From a virus: DNA of 33,670 bases. The DNA lies in the IMG/VR virus record IMGVR_UViG_3300032296_003280, positions 1-33,670 of that record; one strand, given 5' to 3'. The translations under genes were made by a program, and so were the position numbers. The notes under the pieces are model-generated. The model made no database searches and was not told the origin of the DNA. It saw nothing but the letters and a program-made list of their open reading frames with translations. Each line of letters opens with the position of its first letter. Position 1 is the stretch's first letter. Shown piece after piece: positions 2,477 to 24,107 of this stretch.

Positions 2477-2508
2477 TTTGGCTCCCGCACCCCTGGTTCG
2501 TACATTAA
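2477..2508 (+). promoter_or_regulatory. Class A promoter
   Basis: TTTGG at 2477-2481, 19 bases, TACATTAA at 2501-2508. Drives the small genes at 2541, 2750 and 2875. A degenerate palindrome is centred 30 bp upstream of the -33 box. Confidence 0.75.
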
Positions 2509-2540
2509 TGGGGTAGAAGTTAAATAAATAAATAAAGGTT

Positions 2541-2744
2541 ATGCAAAACGGAGATTATATGTTAAAAAAGGATGTGTTAAACTATTTCAAACGCATCAGA
2601 AGTATGAGGTTCATGGACATCAACTTGACTGAACATGATGGCGAATACTATAGTACTGAGGATATTAAGGAACTTATGCCAGCCTCACTGTTTAGAGAGA
2701 TGGAATGTCACGTTATAACCTTCATGTTTAGAAATAATAAATAA
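2541..2744 (+). CDS. Hypothetical protein (67 aa)
   Basis: ATG at 2541 follows the AATAAAGGTT leader; a second in-frame ATG 18 bases on is possible. The product starts with a basic helix (LKKDVLNYFKRIRSMRF) followed by an acidic section (STEDIKELMPASLFREME). First gene behind a class A promoter, followed after 5 bases by a tiny membrane-protein gene. No recognised domain. Confidence 0.65.
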   Translation: MQNGDYMLKKDVLNYFKRIRSMRFMDINLTEHDGEYYSTEDIKELMPASLFREMECHVITFMFRNNK

Positions 2745-2749
2745 AAGTT

Positions 2750-2860
2750 ATGATAAAGAAAATAGTTAAAGAAACAGTAATCGCTACTATGATTATGTTT
2801 GGTATGGCAATGGGTGGAGCAGCCCTGATTATTGGTTTGTATAATATGTTTGGTAATTAA
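2750..2860 (+). CDS. Tiny single-pass membrane protein (36 aa)
   Basis: ATG at 2750 preceded by AATAAAAGTT, the same leader as neighbouring genes, reading 36 codons to TAA at 2858. Five polar/basic residues (MIKKI) are followed by a hydrophobic Gly/Met/Ala-rich segment of about 20 residues, so an inner-membrane peptide is likely. Its promoter and spacing match real neighbours. Function unknown. Confidence 0.55.
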   Translation: MIKKIVKETVIATMIMFGMAMGGAALIIGLYNMFGN

Positions 2861-2874
2861 TAGGGGAAAATACA

Positions 2875-3114
2875 ATGACTCAAGAACTATACGATCAAAT
2901 GAACAAACAGTCCCTGAATATGGCCTCGGCTGTAGGACACCTTCGTGGAACAGTCATTAGTGAAATGCTATACAATGACGACATCACACCATCCAAATTC
3001 AAACGTTTTTATGAGACACTCCAATACTCACATACATTGACAGGCAATACAATGGATGAATTTGATATATCCAGGATACAAAAACGCGCCGAGGAACTTG
3101 GTGTGACACTATAA
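2875..3114 (+). CDS. Hypothetical protein (79 aa)
   Basis: ATG behind GGGGAAAATACA, 14 bases after the 36-codon gene. Helical, polar sequence with no cysteines, no membrane segment and a mixed charge. It is last in the short operon that begins at 2541; a gene-free stretch follows. Not recognised. Confidence 0.7.
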   Translation: MTQELYDQMNKQSLNMASAVGHLRGTVISEMLYNDDITPSKFKRFYETLQYSHTLTGNTMDEFDISRIQKRAEELGVTL

Positions 3115-7243: not shown

Positions 7244-8029
7244 ATGAGAAAAAATATAAATTTAATCCCAATTAATAACGACATTAACAAATTATCTGCT
7301 TTTATCCCTTCTTTAGATAAAGATTGGAGAGATAACCAACGTATTAAATCAAAACCAGTAATGGTTGAATCCTTGGATGCTGTAAGAGAATTTCAACGTC
7401 AAGGTTGGAATATAGCTGGTGCCTATGAAACTAGAGGTAAAAATCGTAAAGTTAATTCCCATTTTATTAGAATGGAACATCCTGATTTTACTATTAAAAA
7501 CTCTAAAGGTAAAACAGAGGCTATTGCTACTATGAATATTTCAAATTCTTGTACAGGAGCACAACCTATGGAACTTGATTTAGGTGCTTATCGTCAGGTT
7601 TGCTCTAATGGTTTGGTTGCTCATACCTCTTATAGTAATGCTAGAGTACCTCATACTGAAAAAGGTCAATATACATTACAAGAAATCCTTTGTGATTTAG
7701 GTATTCGTACTCAAGGTATTATGGAAGAATTTGATAAATTTAAAGAAAAACAATTGTCACCTAAAGAAATGATTAATTTAGCTACACAAGCAGCAAATTC
7801 TCGTTTTGGTAAAGGCCATCGTATTGATGCTTCTCAGTTACTTAATGTAGTGAGAGAAGAAGATAAGAGTGATGATGTTTGGACTGTATTTAATCGTATT
7901 CAAGAAAACCTTACTCAGCCACATCGTATTGTAGATCATATGGGAAATATGATTGGTGGTGTATCTAGTATTGAAGAAGATACTCGTATTAATAAAGAGT
8001 TGTTTGAAATGGCTTACGCTATGGCTTAA
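7244..8029 (+). CDS. DUF932-family protein, copy 1
   Basis: 261 residues. The block LDLGAYRQVCSNGLVAHTS carries the CSNGL signature of DUF932 phage/plasmid proteins, followed by the usual helical C-terminal half. A second, diverged copy is at 10545 (ICENGLVVSS in the same place). The biochemical role of the family is not settled; members are commonly found in phages and plasmids. Start is close to its promoter, with no AAAGGTT leader, unlike its neighbours. The end runs into a 19-bp palindrome. Confidence 0.75.
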   Translation: MRKNINLIPINNDINKLSAFIPSLDKDWRDNQRIKSKPVMVESLDAVREFQRQGWNIAGAYETRGKNRKVNSHFIRMEHPDFTIKNSKGKTEAIATMNISNSCTGAQPMELDLGAYRQVCSNGLVAHTSYSNARVPHTEKGQYTLQEILCDLGIRTQGIMEEFDKFKEKQLSPKEMINLATQAANSRFGKGHRIDASQLLNVVREEDKSDDVWTVFNRIQENLTQPHRIVDHMGNMIGGVSSIEEDTRINKELFEMAYAMA

Positions 8030-8842: not shown

Positions 8843-8866
8843 GGGTTGGTTTTCCAACCCCTCTTT
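8843..8866 (+). terminator. Intrinsic terminator overlapping promoter
   Basis: GGGTTGG-TTTT-CCAACCC, a perfect 7-bp stem, then CTCTTT. As at 8060, the GTTGG arm serves as the -33 box of the following promoter. Confidence 0.75.
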
Positions 8867-8876
8867 CGTACATTCA
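8845..8876 (+). promoter_or_regulatory. Class A promoter inside terminator
   Basis: GTTGG at 8845-8849, 19 bases, TACATTCA at 8869-8876. Drives the operon esterase, ART-like protein, second tagged protein. Confidence 0.75.
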
Positions 8877-8895
8877 TGGTATGGAAATAAAGGTT

Positions 8896-9378
8896 ATGAA
8901 AAAAATAATGTATTTACACGGTTTAGAGAGTTCCAACGTTTGTGATAAAGTTGACTTTTTAAAAGAAAATGCTGTTGTTTTAGCTCCTTCAATTGATTAT
9001 CGTAAATCAAATATTGAAAAAGAGCTTATGGATATGGTTGAATCTTTCCAACCTGATTTGATTATTGGTTCTTCAATGGGTGGTCACGTTGGTTTGATGT
9101 TAGGTAATTATTATGATATTGAGGTTATTGCTTTTAACCCTGCTATTCACTCTCGTCCTATTGAACCTAAATTGGATAGATTAGAAGCTAGAGACCCTAG
9201 AGTTAATTTTCAGCCTTTGATTGTTTTAGGTCTTGAAGATGATGTTATTAATCCTTTGATTACTAAAGAAATTCTTGATGATGCTTTATTTTATTGCGAT
9301 ATTGAAGAAGTAGAAGGTTTAGGTCACCGTATTTTATTTGATGTATTTGTTGATATTTATAACAAATATGTCATTTAA
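8896..9378 (+). CDS. YqiA-like alpha/beta-hydrolase
   Basis: 160 residues from ATG 8896, chosen because AAATAAAGGTT precedes it; an ATG 15 bases upstream is less likely. Nucleophile elbow G58-S-S60-M-G62, acid at D115 or D116 in LGLEDD, and H144 in GLGHR complete a Ser-Asp-His triad. The opening MYLHGLESS supplies the oxyanion loop. Size and motif spacing match the YqiA/UPF0227 esterases. Substrate unknown. The last bases overlap the next gene (ATGTCATTTAA). Confidence 0.75.
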   Translation: MKKIMYLHGLESSNVCDKVDFLKENAVVLAPSIDYRKSNIEKELMDMVESFQPDLIIGSSMGGHVGLMLGNYYDIEVIAFNPAIHSRPIEPKLDRLEARDPRVNFQPLIVLGLEDDVINPLITKEILDDALFYCDIEEVEGLGHRILFDVFVDIYNKYVI

Positions 9379-9892
9379 TTTACTTGAATATCTAAAAAAT
9401 AATCCTTTATTAGAAGAAAAATATAAATCATTTGATACATTAAGTGATAAGGATTTAGAAGATATAGCACAATGGGGACTTAATGATGAGTTCGATTTTA
9501 GTGCTTGTGAGAGTGTTGAATGTGTTGTTAAGTCATTTAAGAAATCTCTATCAGTTTCTTATCCTGAAGGGTTGGGGAATGTTTCTAATGAATTAGAAAT
9601 ATACAGAATTATTAGATTAAAAGATGAAAAAGATTTAAACATATCTAATTTAGGAAAAAGCTGGTTTTCTAATCCTGAACAATATAATAAGCCTGAATTT
9701 TTTGATTCTTTAAGTTATTTAAAAGACAAAAAAACGGATAAAGGAGAGATTTACTTATTAAAAGGGTTAACTAAAATATCTAATGTAGATATCCCTAGAA
9801 CTTTATGGCAAAGAAGTATCACATTTTTTGAAAATGAAATTGTCATTAAAAATCCTTCCCAAGTAAAATTACTAAAAATAAATAAAATATAA
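9368..9892 (+). CDS. Putative ADP-ribosyltransferase with capsid-targeting-like N-terminus
   Basis: 174 residues from ATG 9368, which overlaps the esterase stop and begins the same 17 residues as the next gene (MSFNLLEYLKNNPLLEE). An R-S-E type ART pattern is visible in order: Arg in IYRIIR (R80/R83), Ser block GKSWFS (96-101), and ExE at E155-N-E157 in a final strand ENEIVIKNPSQVKLLKI. T4 Alt is an ART packaged in the head and processed at its N-terminus by the gp21 protease, which cuts after LxE or IxE. Here LLE ends at residue 16. ART activity and packaging are inferences. Confidence 0.6.
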   Translation: MSFNLLEYLKNNPLLEEKYKSFDTLSDKDLEDIAQWGLNDEFDFSACESVECVVKSFKKSLSVSYPEGLGNVSNELEIYRIIRLKDEKDLNISNLGKSWFSNPEQYNKPEFFDSLSYLKDKKTDKGEIYLLKGLTKISNVDIPRTLWQRSITFFENEIVIKNPSQVKLLKINKI

Positions 9893-10449
9893 TGTCATTT
9901 AATTTACTTGAATACCTAAAAAATAATCCATTACTAGAAGAATTACCTAAAGATAAATGGGTTGATATTACTCCGGATGAAAAAGCCGAATATGCTAAAG
10001 ATATATTCGACCTAATCAATACAGCATATGCTCCTATAGGTGGTAATATAAATTATAAAAGCGCAGCCGACGTATTAGGTTCGGAAGCCGATGCTGATTA
10101 TGAGGTAATTAATATAGACGATGATCCTGAACCTGATGCTTTAGTTTCTTATAAAGAAAAAACTACAGGTAAAAAATTAACAGCTATGGGACATGATGGT
10201 ACCTCTGGAGCAAAATCTCTATCTGTGAACCATACAGCTGATTTACTTAAAAAACCAGGTTACTATATAGAAGTTTCAGGTAAATTACAAGATATTTTAT
10301 TAGCTAAAGGTGCTCCTGTAGTAAAAGATAAAGAATTAGTACAAAAAGTATTAAAAGGTAAAGAACTAGAATTTAATGAAGATGGTACTTACCAACGTTA
10401 TATTGGTGGAAAAAAACACACTAAAACATTGCTTGGAAATCCTATTTAG
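9892..10449 (+). CDS. Second protein with the shared N-terminal tag
   Basis: 185 residues; ATG overlaps the previous TAA (TAATG). The first 17 residues are identical to those of the upstream protein, then the sequences diverge completely at ELPKDKW. The remaining body has features I associate with a phage family loosely resembling GNAT acetyltransferases: DDDPEPDALVSYKEK, a GKKLTAMGHDGT turn, YIEVSGKLQDIL, and a C-terminal YQRYIGGKKHTKTLLGNP. Family name not certain. The tag suggests it is packaged together with the ART-like protein. The TAG stop lies in the third palindrome. Confidence 0.65.
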   Translation: MSFNLLEYLKNNPLLEELPKDKWVDITPDEKAEYAKDIFDLINTAYAPIGGNINYKSAADVLGSEADADYEVINIDDDPEPDALVSYKEKTTGKKLTAMGHDGTSGAKSLSVNHTADLLKKPGYYIEVSGKLQDILLAKGAPVVKDKELVQKVLKGKELEFNEDGTYQRYIGGKKHTKTLLGNPI

Positions 10450-10482: not shown

Positions 10483-10514
10483 TTTGGCTCCCCAGGATCC
10501 CTTTCGTACATTTA
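10483..10514 (+). promoter_or_regulatory. Class A promoter
   Basis: TTTGG at 10483-10487, 19 bases, TACATTTA at 10507-10514, upstream of the second DUF932 gene. Confidence 0.85.
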
Positions 10515-10544
10515 TGTCATAGAAAAAAATAAAAAATAAAAGTT

Positions 10545-11345
10545 ATGTTAAACATTCAAAATTCCGAGTTCATTTCAAAAGAACAAATTCGTCAACAAGC
10601 TCCTTCAATTTTTACTACTACCAGTGCTCCTGGAACTAGTGAAAAGTATGCTCACATTCCTACCGATAAAATTATCGATGATATGGCTGCCCTTGGTTGG
10701 GGTGTTGTAGATGCTAAACAAGTTAAAGCTCGTAAAGGAGTAGGTTTCCAAAAACATTTGGTTGTATTCCGTAATAACGATATTCAAATCACTGCTGAAG
10801 ATGGTGATAATGTTTTCCCACAAATCCTATTGACTAACAGTCATGATGGTAAAAATGCCTTTACCTTTACTGCTGGTTTGTTCCGTATGATTTGTGAAAA
10901 TGGTTTAGTTGTATCTTCCCGTGAGTTTGAAAATATGAAGATTCGTCATATGGGTTATTCATTTGAAGAATTGCAAAATACCATTAAAACTATGGTTGAA
11001 AAATTGCCTTTGACTGTTGAATCACTTAATAAGTTCCGTCAAGTAGAATTAGGTCAAGAACAAGCTCTTGATTTTGCTAAAAAAGCTCTTGAAGTTCGTT
11101 TTGGTGATGATGTTGAAAACATTAAAGTTGATTTGAATGATTTGCTTACTGCTACTCGTCCAGCAGATAAAGGTTCTGATTTGTGGTCAATCTATAATGT
11201 AGTTCAGGAAAAATTGGTTCATGGTATGTTTAATTACACATATGGTTCCAAAGTTCGTAAAGCTCGTAAAATCAAAAACTTCCAACAAGATTTGGTTTTG
11301 AACGAACGTTTGTATGATTTGGCCCTTGAGTACGTTCCCGCATAA
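10545..11345 (+). CDS. DUF932-family protein, copy 2
   Basis: 266 residues. The core block AFTFTAGLFRMICENGLVVSS aligns with the CSNGL block of the copy at 7244, and both continue with a long helical region ending in a short Leu/Ala helix. The two are old paralogues: little identity outside the core. Single-gene transcript with its own promoter and AATAAAAGTT leader. Keeping two copies with separate promoters suggests different partners or timing. Role of the family unknown. Confidence 0.75.
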   Translation: MLNIQNSEFISKEQIRQQAPSIFTTTSAPGTSEKYAHIPTDKIIDDMAALGWGVVDAKQVKARKGVGFQKHLVVFRNNDIQITAEDGDNVFPQILLTNSHDGKNAFTFTAGLFRMICENGLVVSSREFENMKIRHMGYSFEELQNTIKTMVEKLPLTVESLNKFRQVELGQEQALDFAKKALEVRFGDDVENIKVDLNDLLTATRPADKGSDLWSIYNVVQEKLVHGMFNYTYGSKVRKARKIKNFQQDLVLNERLYDLALEYVPA

Positions 11346-11595: not shown

Positions 11596-11681
11596 GCTGT
11601 TGTGGCGGAATAGGTAGACGCGTTGGACTTAAAATCCAATGGACCGAAAGGTTCGTGCCGGTTCGATTCCGGCCAGCAGTA
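11596..11681 (+). tRNA. tRNA-Leu(TAA)
   Basis: Class II tRNA: acceptor GCTGTTG/CAGCAGT, anticodon loop with TAA (GGACTTAAAATCC), variable arm, T-arm GCCGG-TTCGATT-CCGGC, A73. No encoded CCA. The first pair is G1-U72. Its D region is the closest canonical relative of the tRNA-like RNAs. Confidence 0.92.
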
Positions 11682-11715
11682 CAAAAAAAAGAAAAAAACA
11701 AATTTTTCACTTAAA

Positions 11716-11747
11716 TTTGGATTTTTCAAAAATTTTTGTTATATTTA
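11716..11747 (+). promoter_or_regulatory. Class A promoter of the large ncRNA block
   Basis: TTTGG at 11716-11720, 19 bases, TATATTTA at 11740-11747. There is no coding gene for nearly 2 kb downstream, so the product is RNA. Confidence 0.75.
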
Positions 11748-11754
11748 TGATATA

Positions 11755-12636
11755 ATAAAAAACGTTCTTAAATTTATTAGATATCCATTTCAACGCAAGT
11801 TGAATAAAAGATATTGGCAGCCTATGGTCGTTAAATAAACTGGGAAACCAGGATAAAGTGAATTGCTAGACTAAGCAGTTTGCGGCTTTGAAAAGAGCTC
11901 GAGTAGGCAAGCGAGATATCATTTGGTCCTAGTATCCGAGGGTAACACTTTAGGAGAATTGATTGAATGACTTGGCAATGTGGTTTGTCAGGTTGAGTTC
12001 GGAAGAGCAATAAGAATAACTCGTAGAAACAATGCAAAAAATACTTCCATCCAGTTGTATTATTGCGTTTTTCAATATCAGAGGATGCTTAAAGTCGGAA
12101 GACATGTTAATGTACAGGTGGTGCTGTTATTAACCTTGACCTTAGTCTACCAAGACATGAGTCATGAAGTAATCTCAAAGTATGGAGGTAGGGATATCTC
12201 AGAGAGTAGTTTAGTATTTTCTCGCTCAAAAGGTGGGGAAGCTAGGTTGGTAGGCCACTACTTTCACAATCCACAAGTCAAAACTTTAATAATTTGCCTT
12301 ATTGGTCGCAAAACCTATTAAATCAAAAATTAAAGCAAAAGTGCTTACCAGTTGCCGACGAAAGGTGCCTACACAGTATTGGGTTGTCCAATGCCATCAA
12401 TGATCGCAAGTCAAAGATGATTCGTTCGAAAAATTTGTAGCCTCGGCAGAGGTTTATCAGACCGCAAGTTTGAACAGATAGAGTAAAACGAGAGTAGTCG
12501 AATAAAAGCAACTTAAAGAGTGGTTTACTTAAATAACCGGCATTGTTAGGATACGAATCAAAAGTTCGTGGATAAGAAGGGAACACATAATCCAACAAAA
12601 GACCTAACACCAAAACGTATAGTCTCAGCGTTTTAT
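11755..12636 (+). ncRNA. Candidate giant structured RNA (~880 nt)
   Basis: No credible ORF, higher G+C than its surroundings, a dedicated promoter at the 5' end and a hairpin AAAACG/CGTTTT at 12612-12634 followed by ATTT at the 3' end. Many local stems with GNRA caps are visible: TTCAAC-GCAA-GTTGAA near 11790, CTGG-GAAA-CCAG near 11840, TGCT/AGCA near 11865, CTCG/CGAG near 11900. At the 3' end TGTTAGG (12543) pairs with CCTAACA (12603) around two inner stems. Known giant RNAs of phages that sit beside tRNA genes are GOLLD and ROOL. Size and context fit that class, but I cannot confirm family membership. Confidence 0.6.
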
Positions 12637-12638
12637 TT

Positions 12639-12711
12639 GCCCCCTTAGCTCAGTTGGTAGAGCTTCTGATTTGTAATCAGATGGTCGGCGGTTCGAGTCC
12701 GTCAGGTGGCT
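12639..12711 (+). tRNA. tRNA-Thr(TGT)
   Basis: Acceptor GCCCCCT/AGGTGGC with one mismatch, D-arm GCTC/GAGC, anticodon arm TCTGA-TTTGTAA-TCAGA, T-arm with TTCGAGT. Starts just after the terminal hairpin of the large RNA. Confidence 0.92.
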
Positions 12712-12713
12712 CT

Positions 12714-12782
12714 AAGGTATGTAAAACCAACAAGTGTATGTTAACAGCTTACTGGTTGACTTAAGCTAAATAGGAATACCTT
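12714..12782 (+). ncRNA. Structured spacer closed by a 7-bp stem
   Basis: AAGGTAT (12714-12720) pairs with ATACCTT (12776-12782), with AACCA/TGGTT or AGCTTA/TAAGCT inside. It is about tRNA length but has no T-arm. Probably folds in the precursor between two tRNAs. Confidence 0.35.
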
Positions 12783-12786
12783 TTAA

Positions 12787-12858
12787 GCAGGTATCGTATA
12801 ATGGTTATTACTCTAGTCTTCCAAACTGGAGACGCTAGTTCGATTCTAGCTACCTGCT
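12787..12858 (+). tRNA. tRNA-Gly(TCC)
   Basis: Acceptor GCAGGTA/TACCTGC, anticodon loop CTTCCAA, T-arm CTAG-TTCGATT-CTAG, discriminator T. Confidence 0.92.
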
Positions 12859-12876
12859 CAAAAAAATTAAATATAG

Positions 12877-12908
12877 TTTGGTATCTTAAGATTCCTTTCG
12901 TATATTTA
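12877..12908 (+). promoter_or_regulatory. Class A promoter of the attenuated tRNA operon
   Basis: TTTGG at 12877-12881, 19 bases, TATATTTA at 12901-12908. Transcription would begin a few bases later, leaving a short A-rich leader before the 31-codon ORF. Confidence 0.8.
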
Positions 12909-12930
12909 TAACAAATAAAAAATTTCAAAA

Positions 12931-13026
12931 ATGAAACATTGTATATCATATCAACTAAGTCCCCAGAAGTCGTTTTGGATGAATCCAGTGGCTGAGGACA
13001 TTAGATTGATTGGGCTTACGATGTAA
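12931..13026 (+). CDS. 31-codon leader peptide containing all 20 amino acids
   Basis: ATG at 12931 behind the A-rich leader AATTTCAAAA; TAA at 13024. All 20 amino acids occur, including single His3, Cys4, Tyr7, Phe15, Trp16, Asn18, Val20, Ala21, Glu22, Asp23, Arg25, Gly28 and Thr30. Amino acids used more than once take different codons: Leu CTA, TTG, CTT; Ser TCA, AGT, TCG; Ile ATA, ATT; Lys AAA, AAG; Gln CAA, CAG; Pro CCC, CCA. It therefore reads nearly every tRNA in the array; Arg uses AGA only. Codons 28-30 are one arm of the anti-terminator. Interpreted as the sensor of an attenuator, not a functional protein. Translation itself is unproven. Confidence 0.75.
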   Translation: MKHCISYQLSPQKSFWMNPVAEDIRLIGLTM

Positions 13027-13084
13027 CGTTTTTAAAACATATTAAAAACACTAGTAAGCCCGGTTCAAAAGATCGGGCTCTTTT
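12959..13084 (+). promoter_or_regulatory. Attenuator: competing anti-terminator and terminator
   Basis: Three stems are visible. (1) GTCCCCAG 12959-12966 with CTGAGGAC 12992-12999, one C-A mismatch. (2) GGGCTTAC 13012-13019 with GTAAGCCC 13054-13061, enclosing an 8-bp hairpin GTTTTTAA/TTAAAAAC (13028-13049). (3) AGCCCG 13057-13062 with CGGGCT 13074-13079 followed by CTTTT. Stems 2 and 3 share 13057-13061 and cannot coexist. The ribosome finishing the leader ORF at 13026 would cover 13012-13019 and favour stem 3. This is classical attenuation geometry. Confidence 0.75.
13057..13084 (+). terminator. Conditional intrinsic terminator
   Basis: AGCCCG-11 nt-CGGGCT then CTTTT, just before the boxA and tRNA-Phe. 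It blocks the tRNA operon when the upstream anti-terminator cannot form. Confidence 0.7.
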
Positions 13085-13096
13085 AGTTCTTTGACA
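13085..13096 (+). promoter_or_regulatory. boxA-like antitermination site 1
   Basis: AGTTCTTTGACA, close to the NusB/S10 boxA consensus TGCTCTTTAACA and like the sequence ahead of Bacteroidota 16S rRNA genes. The motif plus ATATGAGAA is repeated at 14570. Lies between the terminator and tRNA-Phe. Confidence 0.7.
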
Positions 13097-13109
13097 TATG
13101 AGAAAAAAT

Positions 13110-13182
13110 GCGGCAGTAGCAAAGATGGTCAATGCACTGGACTGAAAATCCAGCCATGCAGGTTCGAGTCCTGCCTTCCGCA
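13110..13182 (+). tRNA. tRNA-Phe(GAA)
   Basis: Acceptor GCGGCAG/CTTCCGC (one mismatch), anticodon arm TGGA-CTGAAAA-TCCA, T-arm GCAGG-TTCGAGT-CCTGC, A73. First tRNA after the attenuator. Confidence 0.92.
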
Positions 13183-13188
13183 CAATAT

Positions 13189-13264
13189 AGCGTAGTAGAG
13201 GAGTCAGGTTTATCTCATCTGCTTTGGGAGCAGAGGTACGCCGGTTCGAATCCGGCCTACGCTA
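13189..13264 (+). tRNA. tRNA-Pro(TGG)
   Basis: Perfect acceptor AGCGTAG/CTACGCT, anticodon arm TCTGC-TTTGGGA-GCAGA, T-arm GCCGG-TTCGAAT-CCGGC, A73. Confidence 0.93.
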
Positions 13265-13270
13265 CAAAAT

Positions 13271-13344
13271 GACCTTATAGCTCAATTGGTTAGAGCACTA
13301 CACTTTTAATGTAGGGGTTGAAAGTTCGAGTCTTTCTGGGGTCA
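13271..13344 (+). tRNA. tRNA-Lys(TTT)
   Basis: Acceptor GACCTTA/TGGGGTC, D-arm GCTC/GAGC, anticodon arm CTACA-CTTTTAA-TGTAG, T-arm GAAAG-TTCGAGT-CTTTC, A73. Confidence 0.93.
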
Positions 13345-13350
13345 CAATTT

Positions 13351-13426
13351 CTTTCCTTTGCTTAGTTGGTTTTAAAGCGTCTCTTTTACACGGAGAAGAT
13401 CGTTGGTTCGAATCCAGCAGGAAAGA
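13351..13426 (+). tRNA. tRNA-Val(TAC)
   Basis: Acceptor CTTTCCT/AGGAAAG, D-arm GCTT/AAGC, anticodon loop TTTACAC in stem TCTCT/GGAGA, T-arm GTTGG-TTCGAAT-CCAGC, A73. Confidence 0.9.
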
Positions 13427-13432
13427 CAAAAT

Positions 13433-13514
13433 GCCTGTATCGCATAGCGGCAATTGCAGCTGACTGTAAATCAGCTCTCTTTTGAGTTCGGAGGTTCGAG
13501 TCCTTCTGCAGGCA
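13433..13514 (+). tRNA. tRNA-Tyr(GTA)
   Basis: Class II: acceptor GCCTGTA/TGCAGGC, anticodon arm GCTGA-CTGTAAA-TCAGC, variable arm CTCTTTTGAG, T-arm GGAGG-TTCGAGT-CCTTC, A73. Confidence 0.92.
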
Positions 13515-13520
13515 CTAAAT

Positions 13521-13594
13521 AGAAATATAGCTCAATTGGTTAGAGCACTTGTCTGATACACAAGAGGTTACAAGTTCGATTCTTGTTATTTCTA
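13521..13594 (+). tRNA. tRNA-Ile(GAT)
   Basis: Acceptor AGAAATA/TATTTCT, anticodon arm CTTGT-CTGATAC-ACAAG, T-arm ACAAG-TTCGATT-CTTGT, A73. Confidence 0.93.
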
Positions 13595-13600
13595 CTAAAC

Positions 13601-13673
13601 GGTGTATGTAGCTCAAAGGAAGAGCGTTTGCTTGTGGCGCAAAAGGTTGGGATTTCGAAATTCCTCATATACC
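13601..13673 (+). tRNA. tRNA-His(GTG)
   Basis: Acceptor GTGTATG/CATATAC with an encoded G(-1) at 13601 opposite C73, the His identity pair. Anticodon arm TTTGC-TTGTGGC-GCAAA. The D-loop is short. Confidence 0.9.
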
Positions 13674-13680
13674 CTAAAAA

Positions 13681-13764
13681 GGAAAGTGACCCTTGACGGT
13701 GATAGGGCTTGCCTGCTAAGCAATGTGTACCTTCGGGTATTTGGTTCGACTCCAACTCTTTCCG
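13681..13764 (+). tRNA. tRNA-Ser(GCT)
   Basis: Class II: acceptor GGAAAG/CTTTCC, anticodon arm TTGC-CTGCTAA-GCAA, variable arm GTACC-TTCG-GGTAT, T-loop TTCGACT, G73. Confidence 0.9.
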
Positions 13765-13776
13765 CTATGTAAAAAC

Positions 13777-13785
13777 TATTTATAA
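13777..13785 (+). promoter_or_regulatory. Class B (late-type) box TATTTATAA
   Basis: TATTTATAA eight bases before the ATG at 13793, with no TTTGG at the -33 position. Same box precedes genes at 21617, 24108 and 33282. Confidence 0.45.
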
Positions 13786-13792
13786 TAAAACT

Positions 13793-14245
13793 ATGGAATT
13801 CAGAACATTAACAAACCGGAAAAAAATCAATTTGGTTGACTACGTTAGAGCGTATTTAAACGACAATCCTCATGTTGAGGTGTTGGTTGGGTGTGACTCG
13901 CAAGGTTATTGGGATAAAACGATATATGCAACTGTAGTAGCACTTTATAAACCGGGTAATGGTGCACATGTTTTATATTATAGAGAAACACTACCTGTTG
14001 AAAGAGTTCGTCAAGTACGTTTAATGACTGAGGTTTGGAAATCAATTGAAGTAGCTGAAGTACTTAAAAATGCAGGTTTACCTCAAGTTAAATATATTGA
14101 CATAGACATTAATCCTGACAAAAGATATAAATCAAACGAGGTTTTAAGAGCAGCGGTTGGTTTAGTTGAAGGGATGGGTTATCAAGTTAGATATAAAACA
14201 CTAGGTGCAATGGCAACATTTGCAGCTGATACGTTAGTAAAATAA
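13793..14245 (+). CDS. YkuK/DUF458-type RNase H-fold protein
   Basis: 150 residues from ATG 13793; an upstream in-frame extension would run into tRNA-Ser and is rejected. V-G-C-D35-S-Q starts the RNase H-like first strand, with E80 on the following helix and D103-I-D105 in the next strand (YIDIDINPD), giving the acidic residues of a two-metal nuclease. The pattern matches the YkuK (DUF458) family, predicted RNase H-like nucleases. It is the only protein gene between the tRNA-Phe and tRNA-Arg(TCT) genes, so a role in tRNA or RNA maturation or turnover is plausible but inferred. Confidence 0.7.
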   Translation: MEFRTLTNRKKINLVDYVRAYLNDNPHVEVLVGCDSQGYWDKTIYATVVALYKPGNGAHVLYYRETLPVERVRQVRLMTEVWKSIEVAEVLKNAGLPQVKYIDIDINPDKRYKSNEVLRAAVGLVEGMGYQVRYKTLGAMATFAADTLVK

Positions 14246-14251
14246 CTAACT

Positions 14252-14325
14252 GGTTCCTTAGCTTAATGGATTAGAGCACTTCGCTACGGACGAAGGGGTT
14301 GGGAGTTCGAGTCTCTCAGGAACTA
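14252..14325 (+). tRNA. tRNA-Arg(ACG)
   Basis: Acceptor GGTTCCT/AGGAACT with G1-U72, anticodon arm CTTCG-CTACGGA-CGAAG, T-arm GGGAG-TTCGAGT-CTCTC, A73. ACG would need host TadA to make inosine at position 34. The only array tRNA whose codons are absent from the leader ORF. Confidence 0.92.
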
Positions 14326-14332
14326 CTAATAA

Positions 14333-14403
14333 GGTCAGTTGTCCGATTGGTAAGGTGGGTGTCTGCAAAATTCCCTATATAGGTTCGAATCCTATACTGA
14401 CCT
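14333..14403 (+). tRNA. tRNA-Cys(GCA)
   Basis: Perfect acceptor GGTCAGT/ACTGACC, anticodon loop CTGCAAA in a weak stem (one mismatch), T-arm ATAGG-TTCGAAT-CCTAT, U73 as expected for Cys. Confidence 0.88.
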
Positions 14404-14409
14404 CAATAC

Positions 14410-14480
14410 GTGTCTGTGGTGTAATGGTAACATAGTGGTCTCCAAAACCTCTGTTGGGAGTTCGAGTCTCTCCAGGCATG
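14410..14480 (+). tRNA. tRNA-Trp(CCA)
   Basis: Acceptor GTGTCTG/CAGGCAT with G1-U72, anticodon loop CTCCAAA, T-arm GGGAG-TTCGAGT-CTCTC, G73 (Trp identity). Confidence 0.9.
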
Positions 14481-14511
14481 CAAAAAGAAAGTTAAAGATT
14501 TTTATAAAAGA

Positions 14512-14543
14512 TTTGGCTTTTTAAAGAATGTTTCGTACATTCA
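14512..14543 (+). promoter_or_regulatory. Class A promoter, second tRNA sub-operon
   Basis: TTTGG at 14512-14516, 19 bases, TACATTCA at 14536-14543. A boxA follows 26 bases later; no leader ORF or terminator is seen here. Confidence 0.85.
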
Positions 14544-14569
14544 TTGGGTTGTTGAGATAATAACAAAAT

Positions 14570-14581
14570 TGCTCTTTGACA
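14570..14581 (+). promoter_or_regulatory. boxA-like antitermination site 2
   Basis: TGCTCTTTGACA matches the boxA consensus TGCTCTTTAACA at 11 of 12 positions and is followed by TATGAGAA as at site 1. Lies between a promoter and tRNA-Leu(TAG). Confidence 0.75.
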
Positions 14582-14594
14582 TATGAGAACAAAT

Positions 14595-14676
14595 ACCGAG
14601 GTGGTGAAATTGGTAGACACGCCGGTCTTAGAAACCGGTGCTTAATCGCTTGCGAGTTCGAGTCTCGCCTTCGGTA
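14595..14676 (+). tRNA. tRNA-Leu(TAG)
   Basis: Class II: acceptor ACCGAGG/CTTCGGT, anticodon arm CCGGT-CTTAGAA-ACCGG, T-arm GCGAG-TTCGAGT-CTCGC, A73. Confidence 0.93.
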
Positions 14677-14681
14677 CAAAT

Positions 14682-14781
14682 AGTCAGGTGGCGGAAATGG
14701 TAGACGCACCCAAAAGGATAGTGATGAAGGTAGGAGTACCCCATGTAAAACTATATACAGGTTCAAGTCCTGTCCTGACTA
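14682..14781 (+). ncRNA. tRNA-like RNA 3 (100 nt)
   Basis: Acceptor AGTCAGG/CCTGACT, Leu-type D region TGGCGGAAATGGTAGACGCA, T-arm ACAGG-TTCAAGT-CCTGT (T-loop differs from the other copies). The interior has GGTA-GGAG-TACC and ATAGT/ACTAT stems but no 5-bp/7-nt anticodon arm. Confidence 0.7.
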
Positions 14782-14869
14782 CAAGGAGTGTCAACCTCAA
14801 GTGCTGGGTAGTTAAAAACTATCAGATGAGCCCATCAAAGTTGGTGACAGCTTGGAAAGACAAGTACAC
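14782..14869 (+). other. Structured tRNA spacer
   Basis: Contains GTCAAC pairing with the GTTGGTGAC region and a CAAG/CTTG outer pair, with GGTAGTT-AAA-AACTATC inside. No ORF and no tRNA features. Confidence 0.3.
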
Positions 14870-14941
14870 GTCTTGGTAGCTCAGTGGTAGAGCAAGCGGC
14901 TGTTAACCGCTAGGTCGTAGGTTCGAAACCTTCCCAGGACG
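14870..14941 (+). tRNA. tRNA-Asn(GTT)
   Basis: Acceptor GTCTTGG/CCAGGAC, D-arm GCTC/GAGC, anticodon arm AGCGG-CTGTTAA-CCGCT, G73 (Asn identity). Confidence 0.93.
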
Positions 14942-14947
14942 CTAAAT

Positions 14948-15019
14948 GGCCCTTTCGTCTATCGGTTAGGACATCAGATTTTCAATCTGTAAAGACGGGT
15001 TCGATTCCCGTAGGGGCTA
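14948..15019 (+). tRNA. tRNA-Glu(TTC)
   Basis: Acceptor GGCCCTT/AGGGGCT with G1-U72, anticodon arm TCAGA-TTTTCAA-TCTGT, T-arm ACGGG-TTCGATT-CCCGT, A73. Confidence 0.92.
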
Positions 15020-15025
15020 CAAATT

Positions 15026-15162
15026 TCAGGAGTAATTAACCTGAAACTGACAGGTTCGAAACTGTCGATTGGCTATGGTGTAATGGAGCACAGCAGAACG
15101 GAGTACGAGATTCAATCTCAGAAAGGGGACGCAGGATTAAGGTTCGAATCCTTATTAGTCAG
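15026..15162 (+). ncRNA. tRNA-like RNA 4, Gln-type, with upstream extra T-arm
   Basis: The core 15070-15162 has acceptor TGGCTAT/TTAGTCA (one mismatch), a GGTGTAATGG D region like tRNA-Trp/Gln, and T-arm TAAGG-TTCGAAT-CCTTA with G73. Where the anticodon arm should be there is only GAGAT-TCA-ATCTC and loose sequence. Just upstream, 15026-15066 has hairpin TCAGG/CCTGA with loop AGTAATTAA, matching a hairpin inside tRNA-like RNA 1, and a stray T-arm-like GACAG-GTTCGAA-ACTGTC. Not a normal tRNA; could be a rearranged relic or a functional decoy. Confidence 0.5.
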
Positions 15163-15172
15163 CAAATTAAAT

Positions 15173-15246
15173 TGCGGGGAAGTTGAGCTGGTGCACACAG
15201 GGGTCTCATAAGCCTCTCTAGGTGGATTCGATTTCCACTCCCGCAA
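15173..15246 (+). tRNA. tRNA-Met(CAT), possibly initiator
   Basis: Acceptor TGCGGGG/TCCCGCA, anticodon loop CTCATAA in stem GGGGT/GCCTC, T-arm GTGGA-TTCGATT-TCCAC, A73. The G-rich anticodon stem and weak T1-A72 pair hint at an initiator, but the D-arm is irregular, so elongator is not excluded. Confidence 0.82.
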
Positions 15247-15250
15247 CAAA

Positions 15251-15324
15251 GTGTTGTTCCCTTGAGAAAGGAATGTTAAGACAAAGAGTGATTAATTGTC
15301 TTTAATAACGAACCACTACAACAC
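15251..15324 (+). ncRNA. Structured spacer, tRNA-sized, 7-bp closing stem
   Basis: GTGTTGT (15251-15257) pairs with ACAACAC (15318-15324). Inside are TTCC/GGAA and a long TTAAGACAA/TTGTCTTTAA stem. 74 nt with a 7-bp end stem like a tRNA, but no T-loop. Confidence 0.45.
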
Positions 15325-15346
15325 AAAGGACTTCTCATCCTTAAAC

Positions 15347-15417
15347 TACCCTCTCGTCTAACGGCAGGACAAGTGGTTTTGGTCCACTTAATCGAGGTTC
15401 GAATCCTTGGGGGGTAA
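15347..15417 (+). tRNA. tRNA-Gln(TTG)
   Basis: Acceptor TACCCTC/GGGGGTA, D-arm GTC/GAC, anticodon arm AGTGG-TTTTGGT-CCACT, T-loop TTCGAAT, A73. Confidence 0.9.
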
Positions 15418-15418
15418 C

Positions 15419-15524
15419 TAGGTAGAAGTAAGTAACACCTGTTGCAGGCAACATAAAGTAAGAACCACAACTTGACTGGTCGTTACTTCTTATAATAGAT
15501 AATGTGGATATTGTAAGCTACCTA
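15419..15524 (+). ncRNA. Structured spacer, 7-bp closing stem
   Basis: TAGGTAG (15419-15425) pairs with CTACCTA (15518-15524). Inside are an AGAAGTAA/GTTACTTCT stem and hairpin TGTTG-CAGG-CAACA. No tRNA arms, no ORF. Confidence 0.4.
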
Positions 15525-15527
15525 TTT

Positions 15528-15600
15528 GGGGTTGTAGCTCAACTGGCTGAGCGCTTCCTTTGCAAGGAAGAGGTCATGGGTTCAAATCCCTTCAACTCCA
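15528..15600 (+). tRNA. tRNA-Ala(TGC)
   Basis: Acceptor GGGGTTG/CAACTCC with the G3-U70 Ala identity pair, anticodon arm CTTCC-TTTGCAA-GGAAG, T-arm with TTCAAAT, A73. Confidence 0.93.
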
Positions 15601-15826
15601 CAATGAGTAAGAGATACTCAGCAGTCTTTAATCCAAGACTCATTTAACAATGGATTCGTTCAATCCGGACAGCGAGAATGCCGGATCTTGGGAATAAAGG
15701 ATAAAGACACAAATCCTCCCAGTAGTGTTGATTTATATTTTTATGTGGTAAGACACTAATGTGTTTGTTTTTAAGAAAACTAAACCGTTAAAATCTACTC
15801 ACTTTGAATCTCAGAGTGGGAAAAAC
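15601..15826 (+). other. 226-nt structured gene-free spacer
   Basis: A series of hairpins: GAGT/ACTC, AGTCTT-TAATCC-AAGACT, GGATT-CGTTC-AATCC, TCCGG/CCGGA, TGGGA/TCCCA, ACAC-TAAT-GTGT and CTCACTTT/AGAGTGGG, leading into tRNA-like RNA 5. No ORF. Density of stems suggests a structured RNA rather than filler. Confidence 0.4.
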
Positions 15827-15952
15827 AGTCAGGTGGCGAAATTGGATAGACGCTAAGTGAGTTCAAATGTGTTACTGTTTAATTCAGTGTACAGTTCGCA
15901 GGTAGGATAGTCTGCCACAATGAACATACAGGTTCGAATCCTGTCCTGACTA
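15827..15952 (+). ncRNA. tRNA-like RNA 5 (126 nt)
   Basis: Acceptor AGTCAGG/CCTGACT, D region TGGCGAAATTGGATAGACGCT, T-arm ACAGG-TTCGAAT-CCTGT, A73. Inside, GTTCA/TGAAC encloses a TACTG-TTTAATT-CAGTG arm and a GCAG/CTGC hairpin. The 7-nt loop would present TAA (Leu) with U33, so this copy keeps a trace of an anticodon arm displaced by insertions on both sides. Confidence 0.7.
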
Positions 15953-16170
15953 CACGGTCCGAAACACGACAACGGATAGTGTGCCCAACACGATGAGAAA
16001 CGGAGTGATGACCGTATGGGACTGATGATAGGACAAGGTTCTATTCGGTTTGACTAACCGCGGGGAATATCAAAGAGATGTAAAGAACAACGTACTCTCA
16101 AAGTCTATTTCTAACCCGGTAACGGGGACAGCCACAACACCTGTAAGTTGAATAAATTAGGGTGTTATTT
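15953..16170 (+). other. 218-nt structured gene-free spacer
   Basis: ACGGTC (15954-15959) pairs with GACCGT (16010-16015), enclosing GTGT-GCCCA-ACAC. Then CGGTT-TGACT-AACCG, a GNRA hairpin CCCG-GTAA-CGGG, and AACACC/GGTGTT just before tRNA-like RNA 6. No ORF. Confidence 0.4.
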
Positions 16171-16260
16171 AGTCAGGTGGCAATTGGTGTCACAGCTGCT
16201 TCGGGGGCTGTACAACGTTCCCTGTAATGGGGAATACAGGTTCGAATCCTGTCCTGACTA
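16171..16260 (+). ncRNA. tRNA-like RNA 6 (90 nt, most tRNA-shaped)
   Basis: Acceptor AGTCAGG/CCTGACT and T-arm ACAGG-TTCGAAT-CCTGT, A73. The arm at the anticodon position is ACAGC...GCTGT with a loop TGCTTCGGGG too long for decoding. A second arm TTCCC-TGTAATG-GGGAA takes the variable-arm place. Class II-like fold without a usable anticodon. Confidence 0.7.
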
Positions 16261-16265
16261 CAAAA

Positions 16266-16337
16266 GGTCTATTAGTGTAGTGGTTACCACGTCTCACTGT
16301 CTATGAGATAACCTCGGTTCGAATCCGGGATAGACCG
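16266..16337 (+). tRNA. tRNA-Asp(GTC)
   Basis: Acceptor GGTCTAT/ATAGACC, anticodon arm TCTCA-CTGTCTA-TGAGA, T-loop TTCGAAT, G73 (Asp identity). Confidence 0.92.
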
Positions 16338-16345
16338 CAAAATAC

Positions 16346-16430
16346 GGAAAGTTGGCAGAGTGGTTTAATGCGGCAGTCTTGAAAACTGTTGACTGTAACA
16401 GGTCCGGGAGTTCGAATCTCTCACTTTCCG
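16346..16430 (+). tRNA. tRNA-Ser(TGA)
   Basis: Class II: acceptor GGAAAGT/ACTTTCC, anticodon arm CAGT-CTTGAAA-ACTG, T-arm GGGAG-TTCGAAT-CTCTC, G73. Confidence 0.92.
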
Positions 16431-16540
16431 CACCTTAAAACCGATTCGGGTTCGTGAACAAGGGAGGCCTGCGACTTGAAATACAGACAAATCACGTTAA
16501 ATCTCCTCACACTAGGTGGCATCGGTGACCTAGTACTTAT
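16431..16540 (+). other. Structured tRNA spacer
   Basis: Hairpin ACTAGGT (16511-16517)/ACCTAGT (16528-16534), plus CGTG/CACG and an ACCGAT/ATCGGT pairing that competes with it. No ORF. Confidence 0.35.
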
Positions 16541-16614
16541 GTTCTCATAGCTCAGCTGGATAGAGCAACTGCCTTCTAAGCAGTAGGTCAATGGTTCGAA
16601 TCCATTTGGGAATA
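16541..16614 (+). tRNA. tRNA-Arg(TCT)
   Basis: Acceptor GTTCTCA/TGGGAAT with G1-U72, D-arm GCTC/GAGC, anticodon arm CTGC-CTTCTAA-GCAG, T-arm AATGG-TTCGAAT-CCATT, A73. Confidence 0.92.
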
Positions 16615-16622
16615 CAAATAGG

Positions 16623-16634
16623 AGTTCTTTGACA
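16623..16634 (+). promoter_or_regulatory. boxA-like antitermination site 3
   Basis: AGTTCTTTGACA followed by TATTAAAA, identical in its core to site 1. It lies inside the tRNA operon just before a protein gene and the last tRNA. Confidence 0.65.
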
Positions 16635-16657
16635 TATTAAAAAAGAAAGGAATAAAA

Positions 16658-16954
16658 ATGGAAATAACATCATTTATTTTAGGTATGCTCTCAGTGGTAG
16701 CTGTGATTGTAATTGCAGTTATTGTTAAGGGTATGGTTAAGATTGTAAAACTAGAAAAAGAGTTGAAAAATACTCAAGAAAGCATTGAATGGAGAGATAG
16801 AAATAATTCAGATGCTAATCGTGAAATATACGATAGATTATCAATGATGGATGAACATGCTTATCGTCAATTAGAAGAAATAAAAAGAGATCTTATCTCT
16901 TATGTAGATTCTCGTATAGACAAGCTTCAGTCTAAAAAGGAGGCAACCAAATAA
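16658..16954 (+). CDS. Membrane-anchored coiled-coil protein (98 aa)
   Basis: One N-terminal membrane segment (about residues 4-27, Val/Ile-rich) followed by a charged coiled coil to the end (LEKELKNTQESIEWRDRNN onward). AGAAAGGAATAAAA before the ATG is the closest thing to a Shine-Dalgarno site in this half of the window. Sits between boxA 3 and the last tRNA. The topology resembles an i-spanin or a small membrane scaffold, but the lysis genes are downstream and separate. Function unknown. Confidence 0.7.
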   Translation: MEITSFILGMLSVVAVIVIAVIVKGMVKIVKLEKELKNTQESIEWRDRNNSDANREIYDRLSMMDEHAYRQLEEIKRDLISYVDSRIDKLQSKKEATK

Positions 16955-16989
16955 TTTAAGTTAAACCCGTCAAAGAATTCCTATTTACT

Positions 16990-17063
16990 GGATCCTTAGC
17001 TCAATTGGTTAGAGCAACTGACTCATAATCAGTAGGTCATAGGTTCGATTCCTATAGGATCCA
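16990..17063 (+). tRNA. tRNA with CAT anticodon (Ile2 or elongator Met)
   Basis: Perfect acceptor GGATCCT/AGGATCC, D-arm GCTC/GAGC, anticodon arm CTGA-CTCATAA-TCAG, T-arm ATAGG-TTCGATT-CCTAT, A73. With a second CAT tRNA at 15173, this may be the tRNA-Ile whose C34 is changed to lysidine by host TilS to read ATA; the leader ORF contains ATA. Confidence 0.88.
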
Positions 17064-17091
17064 CGCCACTGAAGACGAAGCGTTTATTCGC

Positions 17092-23220: not shown

Positions 23221-24089
23221 TGCAAAGAATACCTGATATAGATGTTAATAATATATTAAATGCTACTCCCTCAGATTTAAAATCAACCGGTTTAGCTAAG
23301 TTACCTAATTTAATAATTACTTTAGGTAATCAAATTCTTACTATTATTAATCCTTCTCTTGAAACATTAATTTCTAAATATAATATAACTTCTGGAGACT
23401 GTCTTACAGAAGCTCAATTTAATGAATTAATAAATCAAAGAAACAATATAGTAGATCAATTAAATAGAATTAGTAAAACTTTAAATGTTGTTACTATAAC
23501 CTTAACAGGTGCTTCTACTTTTTTAAATTTATTACAATCCGCTATAAATGGGATAGAAATAGCTAAAATAGCCGCTAAGATCGCTGCTCTAGCTTTCCCA
23601 GCATTAGCTGCTACTTTACCAATAACTTTAAATACCCTAAATTCAGCGAAAACTCAACTTTTACTTGATAATAAAGGTAATTCAAGATTAACAAAGATTT
23701 CAAATATTATAGGAGGAGCAGCTTTAGCTGCCTCTATAGTAGGAGGATATGTATTAAAAGCTATTACTTTATTAAAATCTATAGATTCATTTTTACAAAA
23801 ATGTGATCCAAATATATCATCACTAACTTCTATCTCAAAAGAAACTCAAGATATAGCAGATGCTCAATTACAAGCTGAAGCAACCCAAAACCAAGTAACT
23901 TATAATGGTTTTATAATTGAAATAGAAGAAGTACCTTACTCTCCAAGAGTTATAAGAAGAAGAGCAATTGGTAAAAATCAACAAGGTATTGTTTTAATAC
24001 AAACAGAATTATCATTTACTACAGATAATCAAACTCTAATTAACGAACTTAAATTAATAATTGACAGAGATAATTTAAAAGCTTACTAA
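23220..24089 (+). CDS. Putative baseplate/tail protein with hydrophobic core
   Basis: 289 residues. Polar N-terminus, then two Ala/Ile/Leu-rich helices (about 105-130 and 162-185) that look like membrane segments, and a beta-rich C-terminal 60 residues (TYNGFIIEIEEVPYSPRVIRRRA). Position between the spike and the gp25 gene implies a baseplate part; the hydrophobic helices could be a membrane-contacting or lumen-packed segment. Family not recognised. Confidence 0.6.
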   Translation: MQRIPDIDVNNILNATPSDLKSTGLAKLPNLIITLGNQILTIINPSLETLISKYNITSGDCLTEAQFNELINQRNNIVDQLNRISKTLNVVTITLTGASTFLNLLQSAINGIEIAKIAAKIAALAFPALAATLPITLNTLNSAKTQLLLDNKGNSRLTKISNIIGGAALAASIVGGYVLKAITLLKSIDSFLQKCDPNISSLTSISKETQDIADAQLQAEATQNQVTYNGFIIEIEEVPYSPRVIRRRAIGKNQQGIVLIQTELSFTTDNQTLINELKLIIDRDNLKAY

Positions 24090-24095
24090 TTTTAA

Positions 24096-24104
24096 TATTT
24101 ATAA
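24096..24104 (+). promoter_or_regulatory. Class B (late-type) box TATTTATAA
   Basis: TATTTATAA three bases before the ATG at 24108; no -33 box. Confidence 0.5.
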
Positions 24105-24107
24105 ATA

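What the first reader, a model, noticed from the sequence alone, without database searches (positions are those of the whole stretch)
9368..10449. Shared 17-residue N-terminal tag looks like a T4-style capsid-targeting peptide
Two adjacent, otherwise unrelated proteins begin with the identical MSFNLLEYLKNNPLLEE, and the DNA is nearly identical there too. In T4, internal head proteins carry an N-terminal targeting helix cut by gp21 after LxE or IxE; here LLE ends the tag. So both proteins may be packaged and injected with the DNA.
Basis: partly seen in the sequence, partly recalled or inferred. Interest (0 to 1): 0.85.

Follow-up and report, generated by a model that had tools for sequence, protein, structure and literature searches.

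The report
Swappable capsid-targeting tags on phage cargo
Two neighbouring phage genes share the same 17-residue front end, and related phages put this and similar tags on dozens of otherwise unrelated proteins, which fits a removable address label that loads proteins into the virus head so they are injected into the bacterium with the DNA.

Summary
In detail: proteins A (9368-9892) and B (9892-10449) both start MSFNLLEYLKNNPLLEE, 48/51 nt identical with only synonymous differences, and have unrelated bodies. The capsid-targeting reading survives every comparative test I could run, but packaging, cleavage and injection are not shown. (1) In IMG/VR the motif Y[LI]KNNPLL[EQ]E sits at the N-terminus at 30 of 32 sites, on at least six unrelated bodies, one an acidic protein in a head cluster containing gp20-23. 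(2) A sister tag, NFD[LF][KR]KYLAEG[KR]L, sits at the start of 102/104 ORFs. The tagged proteins form 45 body clusters, and one cluster is B itself, so tags are interchangeable. (3) An LxE (T4 gp21) site follows the sister tag in 37/41 clusters, against 11% background. (4) A 150-kb colinear relative carries B with this tag and a gp21-type protease; the window is only a 33.7-kb fragment. (5) The empty site in a near relative shows that A was inserted with the crossover inside the tag. B has a GNAT-like fold. A has no detectable relatives and its function is unknown. This is a new variant of the T4 CTS system, with a much larger and exchangeable cargo set.

The parts
9368..9418 (+). Tag copy 1 (MSFNLLEYLKNNPLLEE), predicted capsid-targeting propeptide of protein A; predicted gp21-type cut after E16 (LLE, 9415|9416) or after E17 (LEE)
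   Evidence: sequence; motif N-terminal at 30 of 32 IMG/VR sites
9368..9892 (+). Gene A, 174 aa; tag plus a 157-aa body without detectable relatives
9419..9889 (+). Body of A: inserted segment absent from near relatives L020/L022
   Evidence: empty-site comparison
9892..9942 (+). Tag copy 2 (same 17 residues), predicted capsid-targeting propeptide of protein B
9892..10449 (+). Gene B, 185 aa; tag plus GNAT-like acyltransferase-fold body, conserved in at least 15 IMG/VR contigs, pT24 and megaphages
8881..9378 (+). Untagged alpha/beta hydrolase (UPF0227/YqiA-like); gene partner of B in distant phages; its stop overlaps the tag start
   Evidence: Pfam PF05728 2.6e-9, NCBIfam YqiA 1.6e-6; neighbour of B in pT24, L017, L027, G027
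8864..8878 (+). TTTCGTACATTNATG promoter-like repeat before the hydrolase-A-B cluster
   Evidence: 8 copies in the window, 0.22 expected
10502..10516 (+). Next copy of the same promoter-like repeat, after B; brackets the cluster

Best explanation
MSFNLLEYLKNNPLLEE is a capsid-targeting propeptide of the T4 type. SHOWN by sequence: it is a mobile N-terminal module carried by unrelated bodies, it is interchangeable with other tags on the same body, it is under amino-acid-level purifying selection, it ends in an LxE site, and close versions of it occur in a genome with gp20-21-22-23 and on a head-cluster protein. INFERRED: during prohead assembly the amphipathic tag (F3...Y8-L9) docks the cargo in the scaffold core; the gp21-type protease then cuts after LxE (after E16) and the freed A and B bodies stay in the head with the DNA; on infection they are ejected into the host and act at once, B as a GNAT-type acyltransferase and A as an unknown effector. 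For this locus the empty-site comparison SHOWS an insertion of A bounded by tag copies; INFERRED from three diagnostic sites is that the crossovers lay inside the tag DNA, so the tag also served as the homology that captured a new, already addressed cargo gene.
For: Motif Y[LI]KNNPLL[EQ]E: 30 of 32 sites in IMG/VR start 7-9 codons after an ATG; bodies include B, A, the L209 334-aa protein, the head-cluster acidic protein (L210/L211/L213-L215/L217), the L203 66-aa protein, and three tandem genes in L212. Head context: G016 23965-24393 MAEFNYTEYIKNNPLLQEE lies in a head cluster with gp21 39753 (PF03420), gp22-like 40474 and gp23-like 41754. Same contig: G039 has B with MSFDYKAYLKNNPLLEE at 2495 and gp21 at 55547 (E 4.3e-31) with further tags in the core cluster. 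Sister tag: 102/104 sites N-terminal, 117 tagged proteins in 45 body clusters, B itself with MDNFDLKKYLAEGRLFNE in L273 and a similar tag in L243. LxE after the sister tag in 37/41 clusters against 10.9% background, x variable. In G039, 15/20 core-cluster genes have [LIM]xE in residues 5-27, against 44/155 elsewhere and 24-25% internal, p=7.5e-5. Tag pN/pS 0.20 against body 0.33, with high pS (0.67) in the tag. The genes seen in the slot between hydrolase and B in relatives (about 5 bodies besides A) carry tags. B model confidence falls at the tag (pLDDT 63-67 against about 90). T4 CTS: residues 4 and 7 target, 8 and 10 process (PMC9026906); T4 record MKTYQEFIAEA.
Against: No virion proteomics or cleavage data. 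The window record itself lacks gp21 and gp23 (it is a 33.7-kb fragment; gp23). The tag is not alignable to the T4 CTS beyond a shared aromatic-[IL]...E pattern. The hydrolase that pairs with B is untagged, so if B needs it at the same time, delivery in the virion would separate them. L028 B has no obvious tag. LxE is a short motif; the KYLAEG search pattern contains one by design (the test used the next, unconstrained LxE), and the tag-bearing clusters share tag ancestry, so the binomial p overstates independence. The core-cluster limits in G039 were set after seeing the tags.
Confidence: 0.8

Rival explanations
1. The tag docks proteins onto the scaffold or another phage structure (core, replication or membrane site) but is not cleaved and the proteins are not injected.
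For: Docking alone would explain a shared N-terminal helix on unrelated bodies and the head-cluster context; in giant phages not all internal head proteins are processed (PMC5694885).
Against: The LxE at the tag end is kept while the residue between varies and through one-residue indels, and a gp21-type protease is encoded.
Confidence: 0.12
2. The shared start is only a recent partial duplication or recombination scar without function.
For: The two copies are 48/51 identical and flank an insertion.
Against: The same peptide is conserved for its amino acids while synonymous sites are strongly diverged (pS 0.67, pN/pS 0.20) and recurs at the start of unrelated proteins in other phages.
Confidence: 0.03
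3. A DNA-level element (recombination site, promoter or translation enhancer) that happens to be coding.
For: The insertion of A used this stretch.
Against: Synonymous divergence in the tag is higher than in the body, different tag peptides replace each other on the same body, and the motif is position-locked to the start codon in frame.
Confidence: 0.03
4. A Nif11-like leader peptide: A would be a peptide precursor with a leader processed by a maturation system.
For: Weak Pfam Nif11 match to A residues 5-48 (E 0.038, 14.7 bits).
Against: Below the curated cut-off of 23.8 bits; B, with the same tag, does not match and has a folded enzyme-like body; no homologous leader-carrying family was seen.
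Confidence: 0.02

Closest known systems
T4 capsid targeting sequence (CTS) of IPI/IPII/IPIII and Alt, cut by gp21
   Same: 10-20-residue N-terminal peptide shared by unrelated cargo, aromatic plus [IL] residues, ends at an [LI]xE site, gp21-type protease and gp20-22-23 in the genome; sister tag ...KKYLAE|G resembles T4 ...QEFIAE|A
   Different: Different sequence and aromatic spacing (F-Y 5 apart, against Y-F 3 in T4); several interchangeable tag classes; 45 cargo body clusters over the two tags sampled, against the eight internal proteins reported for T4; cargo inserted through the tag DNA
Phage P1 DarB capsid targeting signal (Dar antirestriction system)
   Same: N-terminal signal (within 30 residues) sufficient to direct a foreign protein into the capsid (PMC9024508)
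   Different: The P1 paper found no consensus among Dar N-termini and P1 appears to lack a separate scaffold; here the tag is shared and recognisable
Head-packaged ADP-ribosyltransferases and polyvalent/MuF-fused effectors of myoviruses (PMC9503650)
   Same: Enzymatic effectors inferred to be packaged and injected; slot neighbours L011 and L209 have LYHAT/LYHRT starts reminiscent by eye of KptA/ART folds (weak KptA hits for L011 only)
   Different: Here delivery would rest on a short cleavable tag, not a MuF or portal fusion; A itself gives no ART match
GNAT acyltransferases
   Same: The B model's best PDB matches are GNAT enzymes
   Different: No Pfam GNAT match by sequence; substrate unknown; capsid-type tag in front

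Membership tests
T4-type CTS / internal head protein | Same N-terminal peptide on otherwise unrelated proteins | tested here: met
   A and B; at least six bodies with the window tag, 45 body clusters over both tags
T4-type CTS / internal head protein | Peptide ends at a gp21 consensus site (LxE/IxE) | tested here: met
   LLE16/LEE17; LLQE in relatives; 37/41 sister-tag clusters
T4-type CTS / internal head protein | gp21-type prohead protease (Peptidase_S77) in the same genome | tested here: inconclusive
   Not seen in the 33.7-kb window fragment; present on the same 150-kb contig as tagged B in the colinear relative G039 and in 19/29 other related contigs
T4-type CTS / internal head protein | Tag also on a protein encoded in the head-morphogenesis cluster | tested here: met
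   G016 23965, G046 (L217); other tag classes in the G039 core cluster
T4-type CTS / internal head protein | Sequence homology to T4 MKTYQEFIAEA | tested here: not met
   Only a pattern-level resemblance
T4-type CTS / internal head protein | Tag targets protein to prohead, is cleaved, cargo is ejected | not testable with these tools
   Needs virion proteomics or fusion experiments
GNAT acyltransferase (protein B) | GNAT fold | tested here: met
   AlphaFold pLDDT 88.5; Foldseek PDB top hits nearly all GNAT, best E 5e-5, TM about 0.4-0.55
GNAT acyltransferase (protein B) | Acetyl-CoA binding and activity | not tested
   -
ADP-ribosyltransferase (protein A) | Profile or fold match to an ART family | tested here: inconclusive
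   No Pfam, PHROGs, NCBIfam or PDB sequence match; model too poor (pLDDT 43) for a fold search. The suggestion rests only on an R...S...ExE-like spacing seen by eye
Nif11 leader | Pfam match above cut-off | tested here: not met
   14.7 against 23.8 bits

The most novel reading that the evidence does not exclude
Uncultivated T4-like phages (probably of Bacteroidota) use a plug-in delivery platform. A small set of interchangeable cleavable head-address tags labels a large, fast-changing pool of injected effectors, and the tag DNA doubles as the homology by which phages capture new, already addressed cargo from one another in tandem cargo islands.
Probability: 0.5. Interest if true: 0.85.

Novelty: new variant of a known kind. 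Interest (0 to 1): 0.75.

Why it matters
If right, the tag is a sequence-only predictor of which phage proteins enter the cell with the DNA, which normally needs virion proteomics of a cultured phage. It would turn dozens of families of unknown proteins in environmental phages into candidate first-minute effectors (takeover, anti-defence), and would show how a phage gains an injected effector in one recombination step. It would also provide new targeting peptides for loading proteins into phage heads.

Tried and rejected
Protein A: tblastn against phages and plasmids, back-translated scans of IMG/VR (two) and of 84,980 genomes (two), Pfam, PHROGs, NCBIfam and PDB all gave nothing; the single-sequence AlphaFold model is too poor (pLDDT 43) and its fold search meaningless. 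An apparent similarity of the A body to proteins with a shared FFKKYSYKFPKGYPDMNNEQD start (E about 0.05-0.08) is chance level. gp21 and gp23 not found over cut-off in G001 or G002, and no gp23 in the window; these are fragments or other parts of the genome. Named phage isolates with either tag: none found with short queries. Pfam over 44 tagged representatives gave only four weak single hits, including Thoeris inhibitor Tad5 at E 0.0076, about what chance gives in that many scans. Considered and rejected: scar without function, DNA-level element, Nif11 leader (see rivals). Literature searches found CTS work only for T4, P1 and giant phages, none describing these tags; only open-access papers were searched.

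Full report
Observation. The window holds two adjacent genes, A (9368-9892, 174 aa) and B (9892-10449, 185 aa), that begin with the identical MSFNLLEYLKNNPLLEE. The DNA matches at 48 of 51 positions with three synonymous differences, and the match ends sharply at both sides. The next best 51-mer in the window matches 30/51 and shuffles reach 32 at most. The bodies are unrelated.

The tag beyond the window. B is conserved with its tag in close relatives found by whole-protein search. Searching IMG/VR for the bare motif Y[LI]KNNPLL[EQ]E gave 32 sites. Thirty lie 7-9 codons after an ATG; the other two have no ATG in frame. The tagged proteins include B, a 334-aa protein next to B in L209, a 66-aa protein in L203, three tandem genes in L212 (two of which share a C-terminal stretch by eye), and an acidic protein of a head cluster. 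That last case is the most telling: in G016 the protein MAEFNYTEYIKNNPLLQEE... lies in the cluster that also encodes gp21 (PF03420 match), gp22-like and gp23-like proteins.

Interchangeable tags. In the part analysed, 102 of 104 sites are at the start of the ORF, and the tagged proteins of both motifs fall into 45 clusters with no detectable body similarity. One cluster is the B family itself: some B proteins carry this second tag (L273, L243). More distant B homologs carry still others: MVNISEYLEEKI in Tenacibaculum phage pT24, MKHIKLFEEF in G003, MKKSELRQLIKEEI in G027, MKHLKAFEEY in a megaphage. So the tag and the body are separate modules.

The LxE site. The T4 protease gp21 removes short N-terminal propeptides from internal proteins; the CTS of IPIII is 10 residues, with targeting residues 4 and 7 and processing residues 8 and 10 (PMC9026906; T4 sequence read). 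The window tag ends LLE/LEE; relatives with an extra residue read LLQE and keep LxE. In the second tag the search pattern stopped at the L of [KR]L. In 37 of 41 clusters an E follows two residues after this L or after an adjacent L, against 10.9% for L residues in the bodies, with a variable residue between (Y, K, N, F, H, Q, T, S). Clusters share tag ancestry, so the p-value overstates the evidence, but fixed L and E with a free middle residue and shifting position is what a protease site would look like.

Protease in the same genome. The window is a 33.7-kb fragment; gp23 was searched and not found in it, and no ORF in it reads as gp21. The contig of L206 (G039, 150 kb) is colinear with it by gene order: recombinase, hydrolase, B, baseplate genes. 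G039 holds B with MSFDYKAYLKNNPLLEE at 2495-3055, gp21 at 55547-56152 (E 4.3e-31), and by order and sequence terminase, portal, gp22 and gp23. In its core cluster (30-45 kb) 15 of 20 genes have [LIM]xE in residues 5-27, against 44 of 155 elsewhere and a quarter of internal windows (p 7.5e-5); the cluster limits were set after inspection. Of 29 further related contigs, 19 have gp21.

Selection. Over 12 B genes found without reference to the tag, the tag has pN/pS 0.20 with pS 0.67, the body 0.33 with pS 0.435. The amino acids are kept while the DNA is free to change, which argues against a DNA element or a recent scar.

How A got there. In L020/L022, which lack A, the hydrolase end (59/60 identical to the window) runs into one tag and the B body (37/39 identical). 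In the window the same flanks enclose tag, A body, tag. At the diagnostic synonymous sites the left part of tag 1 and the right part of tag 2 match the empty-site tag, while the right part of tag 1 and the left part of tag 2 do not. The simplest account is insertion of an already tagged A by recombination within the tag. Only three sites are diagnostic. The slot between hydrolase and B is a hot spot: other contigs have other genes there, and those seen carry tags.

What the cargo does. B folds with good confidence as a GNAT-like domain (pLDDT 88.5, tag region 63-67; Foldseek top hits GNAT). Its partner gene encodes a YqiA/UPF0227-like hydrolase, untagged, next to B even in pT24, G003, G027 and the L027 megaphage; the second BFVD match of B is a 406-aa protein named as an esterase, possibly a fusion. 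A has no relative in any collection searched and no usable model; the idea that it is an Alt-like ADP-ribosyltransferase is a by-eye lead only. L011's slot protein has a weak KptA-like match. In T4 the comparable proteins are Alt (modifies RNA polymerase) and IPI (anti-restriction) (PMC9026906), and ART and related enzymes are inferred to be head-packaged in many myoviruses (PMC9503650).

Verdict. The tag works like a T4 capsid-targeting sequence with confidence 0.8. Membership in the strict sense remains open because targeting and cleavage were not tested. The kind is known; the new parts are the tag classes, the number of cargo families, tag exchange, and tag-mediated cargo capture. The host (Bacteroidota) is an inference from relatives such as Tenacibaculum phage pT24, not a test.

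Noticed in passing
window 11596-17064: An array of 24 tRNA genes on the + strand, covering nearly all amino acids.
   Followed up: no
window 2496, 6351, 7227, 8081, 8864, 10502, 12896, 14531: Promoter-like repeat TTTCGTACATTNATG, 8 copies (0.22 expected), several just upstream of gene starts; similar text precedes genes in relatives. Possibly a phage-specific promoter.
   Followed up: partly
L077 10001, L123, L144, L153, L155, L156 and others: A second shared N-terminal module of about 45 residues (MDxxDKFFKKYSYKFPKGYPDMNNEQDVLLLESIL) on proteins with different bodies; about 35 of 80 loci match only there. May be another head-delivery module.
   Followed up: partly
window 24108-24491; G001 85271; G039 15682: A gene beside the gp25-like baseplate gene starts with another tag-like helix (KLIKEAVKEAIQEELKEILLEA), similar to starts of other proteins (MKKSELRxLIKEEI).
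   Followed up: no
L122, L125, L134, L235: Repeat proteins (LPDNLxVGGxLxL leucine-rich-like repeats), often tandem, with the tag MIKLLDILKE, related to the C-terminal part of the tagged L209 protein.
   Followed up: no
L212 1786-968 (-): The tagged 272-aa protein has a second, internal copy of the tag core (NEAKNNPLLKES).
   Followed up: no
G001 30646-31909 (L035); G039 143213: Two adjacent genes share yet another start, MKKADNFDxxxWLVENKITxQSRLNEE; a relative in G039 has it too.
   Followed up: partly
L027 3854-8076: In a 635-kb megaphage several adjacent genes start with MKxLKxFE-type tags, B among them, beside the hydrolase.
   Followed up: partly
window 7244-8029 and 10545-11345: Two genes with DUF932-like sequence (the second by Pfam; the first by eye) flank the hydrolase-A-B cluster.
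   Followed up: no
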